Translations under genes and position numbers: made by a program
Notes under the pieces: model-generated
Told to the model about the DNA's origin: nothing
Databases searched by the model: none
What the model saw: the letters and a program-made list of their open reading frames with translations, nothing else
In this document: in pieces, positions 2-36,025 of the stretch
Numbering within the stretch: the stretch's first letter is position 1
How the letters are laid out: each line of letters begins with the position of its first letter
Origin: Dyella sp. ASV24
GTDB taxonomy: Bacteria; Pseudomonadota; Gammaproteobacteria; Xanthomonadales; Rhodanobacteraceae
Assembly (NCBI RefSeq): GCF_016428905.1
Contig: NZ_JAELTQ010000018.1
Location: forward strand, 1 to 54,162
Reading direction: 5' to 3'
Length of the DNA stretch: 54,162 bases

Positions 2-430
2 CTTCGATTGCTGCAGGGCGTTGGTTTCAGCGTGGACCAGAGTCTGCAGATGGTGGCTGACCGTTTTAGGGAAGCGATGCCCTTGCTAAGCCGCGAAGTC
101 GGCGACGCGAACGCGCTTTACCTGCGTGGCCGCACGCGCCTGCAATCGCTGCGTCGCCTGTGCGAGTTCGACAACGATGGCCTGAAAAGCCTGGTGCAGA
201 TTCTGGTTCAAGTGCACGAGCACGGCGGCGCAGTACAGGAGCCGCTTCGTCAATTCGCTGATCGCCTACGCGAACAGCGCAAGCTGCACATGAAGGAATT
301 GGCCGGCAAGCTTTCCGTGAAGATGACGGTGGTGATGATGCTCACACTGATACCGGCGCTGCTCCTCGTGCTCGCCGGCCCGGCCGTCATATCCCTCGCC
401 GCCAGCGTTACCAAACTGCAAGGACATTGA
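2..430 (+). CDS. tadC: Tad pilus inner-membrane platform protein TadC (5' end cut off)
   Basis: This is the C-terminal ~142 residues of a type II secretion F-domain protein; the reading frame is open to the left edge, so the real start lies outside the window. TadB and TadC form the inner-membrane platform on which the TadA ATPase assembles Flp pili. Visible are the soluble helical F domain (LLQGVGFSVDQSLQMVADRF ... LVQVHEHGGAVQEPLRQFAD) and a C-terminal hydrophobic segment (MTVVMMLTLIPALLLVLAG), the usual end of TadC. The assignment to TadC rather than TadB rests on gene order: tadD follows after 2 bp, with DUF3613 and tadG genes behind it. TadC is inferred; the F domain is clear. Confidence 0.85.
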   Translation, partial: LRLLQGVGFSVDQSLQMVADRFREAMPLLSREVGDANALYLRGRTRLQSLRRLCEFDNDGLKSLVQILVQVHEHGGAVQEPLRQFADRLREQRKLHMKELAGKLSVKMTVVMMLTLIPALLLVLAGPAVISLAASVTKLQGH

Positions 431-31412: not shown

Positions 31413-34295
31413 TCACTTCGACGGCTTGGCCGACACGGGGTTGCCGTCGCCATCGATCACCTGCACGTCGCCCAGCTTCAACGCGCGCACCGGGGCCTCG
31501 ATCTTCTTGAGATCACCCACAATCACCCATGTCAGGGCGCTGGGCTTGATGATCTCCTTGATCGCATCCTCAGCCTGCGGCTGGGTCACGGCTTCGGTAC
31601 GGGCTTTGAGCGTCTGCACGTAATCATCCGGATGGTCGTACTGGACGATCTCGCTCATCGCGCCGAGCACCTCAGAGGCGGTCTCGAAGCTGCCGGGCAG
31701 ACCACGGACATTGGAGTCCTTGATCTTGTCCACTTCCTGCTGGGTCAGCGGACGGGCGGCAATGACCTCGTTGGCTTCCTTGGCCACTTCATGAGCGGAC
31801 TCGGCCGTCTTGTCGGTCTGCACTGGCGCATACATCAGGAACGGACGCTGGCCGATCGCATCGCGCATGAAGCTGAAGGCGCCATAGGCCCAACGCTTGT
31901 CTTCACGCAGGTTCATGTTGAGACGCGAGGTGAAGCTGCCGCCAAACGCGCCGTTGGCGACGTCGATGGCCAGCTCGTTCGGCGCTTTGCTCGAGGGTGC
32001 GAGCAGGCCGGCGAGGATCAGCGATTGCGGCGCATCCGGCTTATCGATGAGGAACACGCGCGGCTTGGCCTGGTCGGCCACGGTGGCGATGTTCTTCTTC
32101 GGCACGGCGCTGGAGGGCGCCTTCCAGTCGCCAAAGGCGGCATCGAGCTGCGGGATGATCTGCTGCAGCGTGGTATCGCCGGCGACCAGGATCTTCACGT
32201 TATCCGGGCGCAGCCAGTCACGCTGGAAGGTGGAGAGGTCCGACGCCTGCATCGACTTGATGGCCTCCTCCGTACCTGAGCCGGTGAACGGAATGCCGTA
32301 AGCGTGGTGAGCGCCGTACAGCAGCGGCGGTAGCGTACGCAGAGCCAACGCGGTCGGCTGGGTCTTCTCCTGCGCGATGCCGGCCAGCCATTGGCCACGG
32401 ATGCGCTCGATGTCGTCCGACTTGAAGGCCGGATTGCGCACGATGTCGGCAAACAACGCCAGCGATGGCTGCAACTGGTCGTTCAAGGCATTGAGCGAAG
32501 CGGAGCACGCATCGAGACCACAACCGATGCGGGTGATCGCGCCCAGACGCTGCTTGCGCTTGGCCACTTCCACGGAGTCGAGATCCTTGGTGCTCTCGTT
32601 CATCAGCGTGGTGGTGAAGCTCGCGGTACCGAGCTTGCGGCCTTGGTCGGCCGCATAACCGGCATCGAACATCAGCTGCACGTGCGTTACCGGCACCGTG
32701 TGGCGCTGCGCGAGGATCACTTCGATGCCGTTCTTGAGTTTGCCGCGCTCAAGCTGAGGGAATTTCAGATCCGGGAACTGCGCTACCTGCGGCACACCCT
32801 TGCTGCGATCCACTTGGCTCTTGCCGACGACGTACTCGTGCTTGGCCGGCATCTTGGCCGCTGGGCGGCCTTCCTCCGGCCCCAGCGCGGCGACCTTGGC
32901 GTCTTCGGTATCCGGGTTGAAGTCGTCACCGGCGGGCAACACGGTCAGCAGATAGTCGCCCTTGCTGAGCCACTTGTCGGCGGCAGCTTTGACGCTCGCT
33001 GGCGTAGCCGCGTTGGCGCGCTCCAGATCCTTCTTGTAAGCGCCCGGGTCGCCGCGATAGACCTGACCTTCCGCCAGGATTACCGCCTTGCCGCCGGAGC
33101 CACCCACCTTTTCAAGACCGCGCACGAAGCCGGCGCGGTTACCGATCTTGGCGCGCTCGAGTTCGTCAGCGGTCGGGCCTTCGGCAAGGAATTTCTTCAC
33201 TTCTTCCGCGATGACCGCTTCAACCTTGGCCTGATCCACGCCCTCCTTGATGTCGGCCTGGATCTGGAACTGGCTGGCCAACGCGAACGGCGAAATGCTG
33301 GCGGAGACGTCATCGACCAGCTTGTCCTGATAGACCAAGCGCTGATACAGGCGCGAGGTCTTGCCACCGCCGAGCACGGTGGAGGCAAGATCAAGCTGGA
33401 TGGAATCATCGGTGCCCAGCTGCGGCACCACCCAGGTGCGGTAGATGCGCGGCTGCGCCACATGGTCGTGCTGGATGCCACGCGTGGACTTCTCCAGCGG
33501 CGTGATCCAGGCCTGCTGGCGCGGCACCGGCGGACCGGCCGGGATATCGCCGAAATACTTCTCGGCCTTGGCTTTGGCTTCCGCGACGGTGATGTCGCCG
33601 GCCAGCACCAACGTGGTGTTGGCGGCGCCGTAGTAATCGTGGAACCACTGCTTCACGTCAGCCAGCGAGGCTGCGTTGAGGTCTCCCATCGAACCAATGG
33701 TGTCGTGCTGGTACGGGTGGTTGCCCGGATAGGTGTTGGACAAGATGTTCTGGTCCACGCGCCCATAGGGGCGGTTCTCACCCTGGCGCTTTTCGTTCTG
33801 CACCACGCCGCGCTGGGTATCGAGCTCCTTCTGGCCGATAGCGCCGAGCAGGTGGCCCATGCGGTCCGACTCCATCCACAGCGCCATATCCAGCGCGGTG
33901 GTCGGCACGGTTTCAAAGTAGTTGGTGCGGTCGAACCAGGTGGTGCCGTTCATGTCGGTGGCGCCCGCCAGCTCGAACGGCTGAAAGTAGGTGCCCTTGT
34001 GGTTTTCGGAGCCCGAGAACATCAGGTGCTCGAACAAGTGCGCGAAACCGGTCTTGCCCTTGGGTTCGTCGCCCGAACCCACGTGGTACCAGATGCTTAC
34101 CGCGACAACGGGAGCCTTGTGATCCTCGTGCACCACCACGGTCAAGCCGTTGGGCAAGGTGAAGCGCGTGAAAGCGATATCCGGAACGGCCTGGGTGGAT
34201 TCGGCAGCGGCAGCCTGGGGCATCGCGACCGCAGGCAAGCCGGCCGACACGCTGAGGACGCCTGCGACAAGCAGGGCGAGGGGCTTTCTTGCCAT
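31413..34295 (-). CDS. Exported two-domain M16 family zinc protease
   Basis: A 960-residue insulinase-family protease with a signal peptide (LALLVAGVLSVSAGLPAVA). The first M16 unit has the inverted zinc site HLFEH at residues 86-90 (GKTGFAHLFEHLMFSGSENH) with the third ligand in VVQNEKRQGENRPYG. The second half (from ~residue 505, ERGKLKNGIEVILAQRHTVP) repeats the fold without a zinc site, as expected for the inactive partner domain. M16 proteases enclose and cut short peptides, so a periplasmic peptide-degrading role is likely. The ATG at 34295 has AGGAG seven bases upstream. It is divergent from the sigma-54-controlled small peptide gene. No known partner is adjacent. Confidence 0.9.
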   Translation of the reverse strand: MARKPLALLVAGVLSVSAGLPAVAMPQAAAAESTQAVPDIAFTRFTLPNGLTVVVHEDHKAPVVAVSIWYHVGSGDEPKGKTGFAHLFEHLMFSGSENHKGTYFQPFELAGATDMNGTTWFDRTNYFETVPTTALDMALWMESDRMGHLLGAIGQKELDTQRGVVQNEKRQGENRPYGRVDQNILSNTYPGNHPYQHDTIGSMGDLNAASLADVKQWFHDYYGAANTTLVLAGDITVAEAKAKAEKYFGDIPAGPPVPRQQAWITPLEKSTRGIQHDHVAQPRIYRTWVVPQLGTDDSIQLDLASTVLGGGKTSRLYQRLVYQDKLVDDVSASISPFALASQFQIQADIKEGVDQAKVEAVIAEEVKKFLAEGPTADELERAKIGNRAGFVRGLEKVGGSGGKAVILAEGQVYRGDPGAYKKDLERANAATPASVKAAADKWLSKGDYLLTVLPAGDDFNPDTEDAKVAALGPEEGRPAAKMPAKHEYVVGKSQVDRSKGVPQVAQFPDLKFPQLERGKLKNGIEVILAQRHTVPVTHVQLMFDAGYAADQGRKLGTASFTTTLMNESTKDLDSVEVAKRKQRLGAITRIGCGLDACSASLNALNDQLQPSLALFADIVRNPAFKSDDIERIRGQWLAGIAQEKTQPTALALRTLPPLLYGAHHAYGIPFTGSGTEEAIKSMQASDLSTFQRDWLRPDNVKILVAGDTTLQQIIPQLDAAFGDWKAPSSAVPKKNIATVADQAKPRVFLIDKPDAPQSLILAGLLAPSSKAPNELAIDVANGAFGGSFTSRLNMNLREDKRWAYGAFSFMRDAIGQRPFLMYAPVQTDKTAESAHEVAKEANEVIAARPLTQQEVDKIKDSNVRGLPGSFETASEVLGAMSEIVQYDHPDDYVQTLKARTEAVTQPQAEDAIKEIIKPSALTWVIVGDLKKIEAPVRALKLGDVQVIDGDGNPVSAKPSK

Positions 34296-34434
34296 CACGA
34301 CACTCCTGGTTTTTAACGGATGAACGCACCGAGGCTAGCCACGCCCCGGAACCTTGGCAAATGACCAATGGCATGGTGGACAACCCTGGAAGCGCTTCGT
34401 TCGCCGCGAGGGTGTGACAGCAGACCCCAGCCCC

Positions 34435-34491
34435 CGTCCGCAGGGTGTCCGCACCCTGTCCGGCCGCGGCCGGTCGCTGTCCGCGGACAGC
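34435..34491. promoter_or_regulatory. Phased TGTCCG half-sites and palindromes (candidate enhancer-binding sites)
   Basis: TGTCCG or CGTCCG occurs at 34435, 34446, 34457 and 34478, with spacings of 11, 11 and 21 bp, all on one DNA face. The last is part of the perfect 16-bp palindrome GCTGTCCGCGGACAGC (34476-34491). Two more dyads are AGGGTG-TCCG-CACCCT (34442-34457) and CCGGCCGCGGCCGG (34460-34473). The array ends about 90 bp upstream of the predicted sigma-54 start site, the usual distance for an enhancer-binding activator. Confidence 0.65.
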
Positions 34492-34556
34492 GAAACGTCT
34501 TAAGTGGCCCACGAAGATATCTAGCAAATACAGTCACTTGATGACGCAAAGGAGGT

Positions 34557-34573
34557 TGGCACGGGGCTTGCCA
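34557..34573 (+). promoter_or_regulatory. Sigma-54 (RpoN) -24/-12 promoter
   Basis: TGGCACG (34557-34563), four bases, then TTGCCA (34568-34573). The invariant GG (34558-34559) and GC (34570-34571) are exactly 10 bp apart, and the -24 element is a perfect consensus. The predicted start of transcription is near 34583, giving a 36-nt leader before the ATG at 34619. Confidence 0.8.
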
Positions 34574-34618
34574 TATCTACCGTGCAGGACCTACCCCACT
34601 TTCATCGGAGACATGATC

Positions 34619-34828
34619 ATGAAATTCGAAGCCCTGATGCTGCGCAGCCTCTTCGTTGCCTGCCTGTTGGTTTGCGGACTCGTGCTGGGTGCCATGGTGA
34701 ACGCCTCGCCCCAGGCCATTCGCCTCGCCGCTGCCGGTACCGCCGGCCAATTGATTGCCACCCCAACCGCCACCGCCTGCGCGCTGCCGCCCGATGGCGT
34801 GGTGTGCCCCCGCATCACCAACGGCTGA
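34619..34828 (+). CDS. Small exported peptide with a cysteine pair, under a sigma-54 promoter
   Basis: A 69-residue product with a clear signal peptide (hydrophobic LMLRSLFVACLLVCGLVLGA, residues ~7-26; cleavage probably near NASPQA). The mature part of roughly 38 residues is Ala/Thr-rich and ends in ACALPPDGVVCPRITNG, where two cysteines nine residues apart could form one disulfide loop. The start at 34619 is supported by GGAG eight bases upstream; an ATG at 34613 is too close to that site. I recognise no family. Sigma-54 control and the divergent peptide-degrading M16 protease make a secreted signal, toxin or stress peptide conceivable, but this is inference. trmL follows 63 bp downstream. 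Confidence 0.65.
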   Translation: MKFEALMLRSLFVACLLVCGLVLGAMVNASPQAIRLAAAGTAGQLIATPTATACALPPDGVVCPRITNG

Positions 34829-35873: not shown

Positions 35874-36025
35874 CGCTACGCTTCCCGATCGCTGAGGCTA
35901 GGGAGAGAGGACGCTACGCTTTCCTACCGCCGAGGCAAGGTAAAGGGAGCGCTACGCTTTCCCTCCACTGGGGCAAGGTAAAGCAGACGCTACGCTTCCC
36001 GACCGGTGGGGAGAACTCGCCACCA
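35874..36025 (+). repeat. 38-bp tandem repeat, four units
   Basis: CGCTACGCTT begins at 35874, 35912, 35950 and 35988, exactly 38 bp apart each time. Units 2 and 3 are the most alike (each also ends with GGCAAGGTAAAG), and the outer ones are degenerate. There are no spacers, so this is not a CRISPR array. It lies in the centre of the composite inverted repeat. Confidence 0.75.

What the first reader, a model, noticed from the sequence alone, without database searches (positions are those of the whole stretch)
34435..34828. Enhancer-dependent (sigma-54) unit driving a tiny exported cysteine-pair peptide
Seen: a -24/-12 element TGGCACG-N4-TTGCCA with exact GG-N10-GC spacing, 36 bp before a 69-codon gene that has a ribosome site and signal peptide. 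Established: sigma-54 promoters need an activator bound about 80-150 bp upstream. Here an array of TGTCCG half-sites and a 16-bp palindrome sits about 90-150 bp upstream of the predicted start. Inference: a secreted small peptide (mature part ~38 residues with ALPPDG between two Cys) is switched on by an unknown bacterial enhancer-binding protein. I know no described family for the peptide.
Basis: partly seen in the sequence, partly recalled or inferred. Interest (0 to 1): 0.78.

Follow-up and report, generated by a model that had tools for sequence, protein, structure and literature searches.

The report
Tiny membrane peptides switched with exporters
A very small bacterial gene carries a switch shared with a pump operon that also encodes the likely master regulator, and comparison with relatives suggests that its product is a tiny membrane helix working with that pump and sensor rather than a freely secreted peptide.

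Summary
A near-consensus sigma-54 promoter (34557-34571), a TGTCCGCGGACA palindrome 67 bp upstream and extra TGTCCG half-sites precede a 69-codon gene (34619-34828) in a Dyella genome. The peptide is found in 20/20 genomes of its genus, 13/17 others of the family (two marginal) and 0/24 of other families, and is under purifying selection. Palindrome plus promoter occurs in 113/147 family genomes (reversed control 0/147) and in 0/142 elsewhere in the class. The 'unknown enhancer-binding protein' can be nominated: an NtrC-type regulator and a histidine kinase at the end of a MacB/FtsX-type ABC exporter operon carrying the same promoter. In three genomes with every listed site read, 18/18 sites precede exporter genes or this peptide family. 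The 'secreted peptide' part is doubtful: the N-terminal helix is its most conserved part, some relatives are only 27-28 residues, and no cleavage site is conserved. Most likely it is a one-helix membrane peptide modulating the kinase or exporter, somewhat as MgrB does PhoQ. The regulon is well supported; the peptide's action is inferred. No experiment.

The parts
34436..34462 (+). array of TGTCCG half-sites (GTCCGC 34436-34441; TGTCCG 34446-34451 and 34457-34462)
   Evidence: over 172 distinct sites TGTCC clusters about -21, -32 and -12 from the palindrome
34476..34491 (.). 16-bp palindrome GCTGTCCGCGGACAGC, core TGTCCGCGGACA: putative enhancer (activator) site
   Evidence: core present in 29 of 30 orthologous loci; 4 copies in the own genome
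34490..34556 (+). 67-bp spacer; an IHF-like site sits here in many relatives but is weak in the window (2-3 mismatches)
34557..34571 (+). sigma-54 type -24/-12 promoter TGGCACGGGGCTTGC
   Evidence: 29 of 30 loci
34607..34610 (+). ribosome-binding site GGAG, 8 nt before ATG 34619
34619..34828 (+). 69-codon gene (range includes the stop): N-terminal membrane helix (about residues 2-29) and tail with C54-ALPPDGVV-C63
34892..35359 (+). trmL (tRNA methyltransferase), downstream neighbour
   Evidence: a trmL-like frame also follows many relatives
31413..34298 (-). M16-like zinc peptidase, divergent neighbour, not known to belong to the unit (family name recalled from the sequence, not scanned)

Best explanation
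The gene encodes a one-helix inner-membrane peptide with a periplasmic Cys-pair tail. It belongs to a family of tiny membrane peptides in the regulon of a two-component system: a histidine kinase with a very short outside loop and an NtrC-type sigma-54 activator, both encoded at the end of a MacB/FtsX-type ABC exporter operon. On envelope stress (for example an antimicrobial peptide sensed through the permeases) the phosphorylated activator binds TGTCCGCGGACA, DNA bending (IHF) brings it to the -24/-12 promoter, and exporter and peptides rise together. The peptide's helix then modulates the kinase or the permeases, most simply as feedback, with the tail as a possible redox or ligand input. Shown by sequence: conserved promoter and operator, shared regulon, helix conservation, purifying selection. 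Inferred: activator binding, stimulus, topology, partner, sign of the effect.
For: Composite site in 113/147 family genomes, control 0/147, and 0/142 elsewhere in the class, where the activator ortholog is in 1/142. In 49 of 50 genomes where a listed site and the activator gene share a contig, a site lies 5.1-26.0 kb upstream of it on the same strand. The operon, read in full in G002, encodes HlyD-type adaptor, ABC ATPase, MacB_PCD/FtsX permeases, then response-regulator/Sigma54_activat/HTH_8 and HAMP/HATPase proteins; the own genome has the same regulator and kinase on C91. All 18 listed sites of three genomes lie before peptides, permeases or adaptors. Activator in 82/83 and composite site in 82/83 peptide-positive genomes (tallied by eye). 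K2, E4, L8, C19, M26 near invariant in 131 peptides; 27-28-aa members with GGAG-type ribosome sites. Helix 2-29, pLDDT about 79-95. About 23 residues between the kinase's two hydrophobic stretches. rpoN present.
Against: No experiment. Co-occurrence is confounded by phylogeny: the peptide is confined to part of one family, while exporter, kinase and activator are wider, so the circuit does not need the peptide. A signal-peptidase-like VNA|SP site exists in the window peptide and most same-genus orthologs in A1. The model's tail is unreliable (pLDDT 41-54). The helix counts come from peptides picked with a helix profile. No sequence link to MgrB or another small membrane protein was found. G148 has site and activator on one contig, but its one listed site is not linked (further rows were not listed). 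Two of four exact palindromes in the own genome have no -24/-12 nearby. The regulon is not only exporter and peptides: hydrolases, DUF4440 and unclear genes also follow sites in other genomes.
Confidence: 0.55

Rival explanations
1. The first 29 residues are a cleaved signal peptide, and the ~40-residue disulfide-bonded peptide is released and exported by the co-regulated MacB-type pump as a toxin, signal or decoy.
For: Most same-genus members have VNA|SP at a plausible cleavage position; both Cys, D59, G60 and P64 are invariant in the 16 aligned sequences; an exporter is in the same regulon. That MacB-type pumps can act on periplasmic peptides is recalled, not tested.
Against: The helix is more conserved than the tail; acidic E4 near invariant; 27-28-aa members lack any mature part; several sequences do not fit a cleavage site (LTY in L024, LGD in L027); of 39 distinct peptides without a trmL-like frame downstream only 2 have the Cys pair.
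Confidence: 0.25
2. The peptide is a subunit or stabiliser of the FtsX/MacB permeases (AcrZ-like, name recalled) with no role in signalling.
For: The regulon holds many permeases, including permease genes away from the main operon under the same promoter; several helix paralogs in many genomes.
Against: Genera with the exporter operon but no peptide match exist, so the pump does not generally need it; the partner was not tested.
Confidence: 0.15
3. The sigma-54 unit is real, but its main output is trmL or another downstream gene, the small ORF being a leader.
For: A trmL-like frame follows the peptide gene in many loci.
Against: Paralogs with the same promoter stand before unrelated genes; amino-acid constraint, pN/pS about 0.2.
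Confidence: 0.05

Closest known systems
MgrB (PhoQ/PhoP feedback peptide of E. coli and relatives; PMC8404706 passages read; PMC2789325 and PMC10576120 seen in the listing only)
   Same: Very small one-helix membrane protein induced by a two-component system; short periplasmic tail with two conserved, functionally important cysteines plus important D and G residues; a conserved Cys within the helix.
   Different: No Pfam family is shared (0 families); here sigma-54/NtrC-type control, several paralogs, some with no tail at all, and co-regulation with MacB-type exporters. Contact with the kinase is untested.
BceRS-BceAB peptide-sensing modules of Firmicutes (PMC7828314, passages read)
   Same: Kinase lacking an outside sensor domain, associated with an ABC transporter whose genes the regulator induces.
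   Different: Gram-negative; HlyD-type adaptor and many MacB-type permeases; NtrC-type activator with sigma-54; tiny peptide family added; a sensing role of the permeases is inferred.
MacAB-type tripartite exporters (recalled as a family; domains)
   Same: HlyD-type adaptor, ABC ATPase, MacB_PCD/FtsX permeases.
   Different: ATPase and permeases are separate genes, with many tandem permeases, under a sigma-54 type promoter.

Membership tests
sigma-54 (-24/-12) promoters | GG-N10-GC with TGGCAC/TTGC context | tested here: met
   29 of 30 loci
sigma-54 (-24/-12) promoters | conserved upstream site and an RpoN gene in the genome | tested here: met
   palindrome 67 bp upstream; PF04552 match in the own genome. 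Binding is not testable here
NtrC-type response regulator (proposed activator) | receiver + AAA+ with GAFTGA loop + Fis-type HTH | tested here: met
   domains; loop reads GAYTGA in P0001 and in 6 of 7 loci L261-L267, GAFTGA in L110 and L264
NtrC-type response regulator (proposed activator) | binds TGTCCGCGGACA and activates the window promoter | not testable with these tools
   only linkage and co-occurrence
intramembrane-sensing histidine kinase (proposed) | two membrane helices with a short extracytoplasmic loop, no sensor domain | tested here: met
   hydropathy stretches at residues 10-31 and 55-76, about 23 residues between; Pfam shows HAMP and HATPase domains only. Hydropathy only, one protein
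MgrB | sequence family membership | tested here: not met
   0 Pfam families at E<=10; an analogy only
MgrB | inhibits its sensor kinase | not testable with these tools
   none
secreted peptide with signal peptide | conserved cleavage site and mature part | tested here: inconclusive
   plausible in most same-genus sequences, not conserved across A1; 27-28-aa relatives; no signal-peptide predictor was available
BceRS-BceAB modules | transporter needed for kinase signalling | not testable with these tools
   gene content only

The most novel reading that the evidence does not exclude
A previously undescribed family of interchangeable one-helix membrane micro-peptides, as short as 27 residues and multiplied within genomes, acts as modulators of a sigma-54-controlled kinase-exporter stress module. 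Variable tails (with or without a Cys pair) plug different inputs into one conserved helix: a Gram-negative sensing-and-efflux system with its own peptide 'adapters'.
Probability: 0.35. Interest if true: 0.85.

Novelty: new variant of a known kind. Interest (0 to 1): 0.7.

Why it matters
It turns an isolated guess into a defined, testable regulon: one operator-promoter signature links a kinase and sigma-54 activator, MacB-type exporters and a family of helix-only micro-peptides. It offers a way to ask how two-component systems without sensor domains are tuned, and it supplies natural 27-28-residue candidate membrane proteins in several genomes. The peptide has no Pfam or NCBIfam family, and the operator string is in the held papers only once, in an unrelated human-gene study.

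Tried and rejected
Literature: the operator sequence is in one unrelated human-gene paper. Searches on Dyella with sigma-54, Lysobacter, Rhodanobacter, Stenotrophomonas/MacB/NtrC and FtsX or intramembrane-sensing combinations listed nothing on this system (listings only). Only open-licence papers are held, so absence there is weak.

Anti-phage defence: PADLOC gave no hit for peptide or kinase; the hits of activator, ATPase and permease look like generic AAA+, ABC and FtsX/LolE similarity. Lipoprotein reading: the FVAC box comes too early and has a poor -3 residue (my reading, no tool).

Exact palindromes at C229 and C318 of the own genome have no -24/-12 element in the 3 kb read; C318 lies in an adhesin-like frame (my reading). 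G065 has a site but no activator; its site has an odd 56-bp spacing before a frame that looks like a transposase (recalled, not scanned), read as chance. G065 does have a weak peptide match (E 2.6e-9).

Structure: mean pLDDT 64.6, only the helix is reliable, so no fold search was run.

Biases: the 172 distinct sites come from loci partly fetched through the peptide, and the pattern itself fixed most promoter letters, so their class counts (116 peptide, 30 adaptor, 10 permease, 16 other) are not frequencies. By eye the 16 'other' are 5 adaptor variants, 2 permeases, 3 alpha/beta-hydrolase-like, 2 DUF4440-like and 4 unclear. From the motif-only loci L066-L095, 21 sites not already seen elsewhere gave 8 adaptor, 4 peptide, 1 permease, 8 other by script; by eye those 8 are 4 adaptors, 2 permeases and 2 unclear. 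The helix profile was built by hand, so one search counts only peptides that resemble it. One 24-residue hit (L180) may be a decayed copy.

Full report
WHAT IS THERE. The window lies in a Dyella genome: its closest relatives in the named collection are Dyella species, and the own assembly has 5.6 Mb in 635 contigs. Between a divergent M16-like peptidase (name recalled) and trmL lies a 69-codon gene, 34619-34828. Before it stand a 16-bp palindrome GCTGTCCGCGGACAGC (34476-34491), further TGTCCG half-sites, and a -24/-12 element TGGCACGGGGCTTGC (34557-34571) with correct spacing. Sigma-54 itself is encoded in the genome (PF04552).

IS IT MORE THAN CHANCE. The peptide matches 33 of 61 relatives at E<=0.01: 20 of 20 of the genus (own included), 13 of 17 other genomes of the family (two of them, G020 and G023, only at E about 0.009), 0 of 24 from other families of the order. 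Over 20 same-genus orthologs, uncorrected pS is 0.33 and pN 0.065; for alignment columns 1-27, 0.22 and 0.026; for the tail, 0.39 and 0.093 (sequence pairs are not independent). In 30 loci, 29 keep TGGC-N7-TTGC and 29 keep TGTCCGCGGACA. Where a related small gene stands just upstream, the promoter sits before the first gene of the pair (L021, L022, L024, L027). The composite pattern is in 113 of 147 family genomes and 23 of 26 genera, with 0 of 147 for the reversed pattern, and in 0 of 142 other genomes of the class.

ARCHITECTURE. Among 172 distinct sites in the loci held, the gap from palindrome to TGG is 64-69 bp in 167, 67 being commonest (87), and extra TGTCC half-sites cluster near -21, -32 and -12 (the pattern allowed gaps of 54-80). 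An IHF-like match (WATCAANNNNTTR, consensus recalled) with at most one mismatch occurs in the spacer of 56 of 116 peptide promoters, against 5.5 expected from base shuffles, 52 of them 37-39 bp after the palindrome; 15 of 30 adaptor promoters against 1.0. In the window itself it is weak, 2-3 mismatches.

WHO SWITCHES IT. In the own genome a relaxed pattern finds four sites: the window gene, the C341 operon, a second peptide gene on C585, and on C603 a gene resembling the alpha/beta hydrolase of L133. The operon, read in full in G002, encodes an HlyD-type adaptor, an ABC ATPase, many FtsX-type permeases (two scanned: MacB_PCD and FtsX), a DUF885 protein, a PDZ protein, an NtrC-type regulator, a 112-residue unknown and a HAMP/HATPase kinase. 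The own genome has its first part on C341 and permease end, DUF885-like gene, regulator and kinase on C91. The regulator has a receiver, a sigma-54 interaction domain with GAYTGA in place of GAFTGA, and a Fis-type HTH; the own copy is 99% identical to that of G002. Of 59 genomes with listed sites, 49 have a site 5.1-26.0 kb upstream of the activator gene on the same strand; 8 have the two on different contigs; G065 has no activator; G148 has both on one contig but no linked site among the listed rows (one search did not list all rows). The activator is found in 141 of 147 family genomes at E<=1e-75, two of them (G096, G117) with much weaker matches, probably paralogs, and in 1 of 142 outside at E<=1e-120. 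By eye, of 83 peptide-positive genomes 82 have the activator (not G065) and 82 the composite site (not G082); 31 of the 64 peptide-negative genomes have the composite site too. Five of seven loci from genera without a peptide match (L261-L265) show, before an adaptor with the RDT[SA]AQD motif, TGTCC half-sites and a TGGC-N7-TTGC element, one of them (L265) the full palindrome. In L266 and L267 no such adaptor was seen; L267 holds a palindrome and promoter before a variant adaptor. So the kinase-exporter circuit looks older than the peptide.

THE REGULON IS NARROW. In G168, G131 and G118 I read every site listed: 18 of 18 lie before peptide genes (9), permeases (6) or adaptor operons (3). In other genomes the same site also precedes alpha/beta-hydrolase, DUF4440 and unclear genes. 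Some micro-peptide genes stand before beta-lactamase-family genes (L117, L122).

WHAT THE PEPTIDE IS. One search took 135 distinct peptides downstream of sites with a hand-built helix profile. Of 96 with a trmL-like frame in the stretch read, 83 have a Cys-pair tail; of 39 without, 2 do, one of them L002, a 97%-identical ortholog, so the trmL label is imperfect. Among 131 N-termini, K2 is kept in 127, E4 in 128, L8 in 127, C19 in 122 and M26 in 127. Members of 27-28 residues that stop just after this helix occur in at least two groups: 27-residue ones in L024, L188, L195 and L271 (L188 and L195 are Luteibacter), and 28-residue ones in L054, L117, L127 (two in tandem), L130, L139, L225, L227 and L273 (L225 and L227 are Dyella). 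All lie downstream of a composite promoter and have a GGA-type ribosome site. AlphaFold gives a helix 2-29 at pLDDT about 79-95 and an unreliable tail. These facts fit a membrane-anchored peptide better than a secreted one, but do not exclude cleavage of the Cys-pair form.

HOW IT PROBABLY WORKS. The kinase has two hydrophobic stretches with about 23 residues between them and no recognised sensor domain. BceS-type kinases, which lack an outside sensing domain, form a sensory complex with their ABC transporter (PMC7828314, passages read). Small membrane proteins induced by a two-component system can act back on the kinase: MgrB, whose two periplasmic cysteines and D31 and G37 matter for activity (PMC8404706, passages read). 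I therefore propose that the helix binds the kinase or the permeases and tunes the response. This step is inference; partner and sign are open.

LIMITS. Everything is sequence comparison. Nothing on this system was listed in the open-licence library under the searches made, which does not prove it unpublished.

Noticed in passing
window 35874-36005: Three imperfect direct copies of a 56-nt unit at 38-nt spacing between trmL and the UbiJ-like gene.
   Followed up: no
L034 1501-1760 (G000:C341): A long GGCTTT/GGCTTC hexanucleotide run lies close upstream of the operator of the exporter operon.
   Followed up: no
L117, L130, L139, L122: Helix micro-peptide genes (28 aa; 47 aa in L122) under the same promoter are followed by serine-hydrolase-like genes, Pfam Beta-lactamase for L117 and L122.
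   Followed up: partly
L096 15538-16872; L110; L264: The sigma-54 activator has GAYTGA instead of GAFTGA in P0001 and in 6 of 7 loci L261-L267; GAFTGA in L110 and L264.
   Followed up: partly
L048 (G000:C603:7605-7698), L133, L143: An alpha/beta-hydrolase-like gene has a related operator and -24/-12 element in several genomes (Pfam on L133 only).
   Followed up: partly
L118, L119, L125, L126, L129, L136, L138: Permease-like genes at sites other than the adaptor operon carry the same composite promoter.
   Followed up: partly
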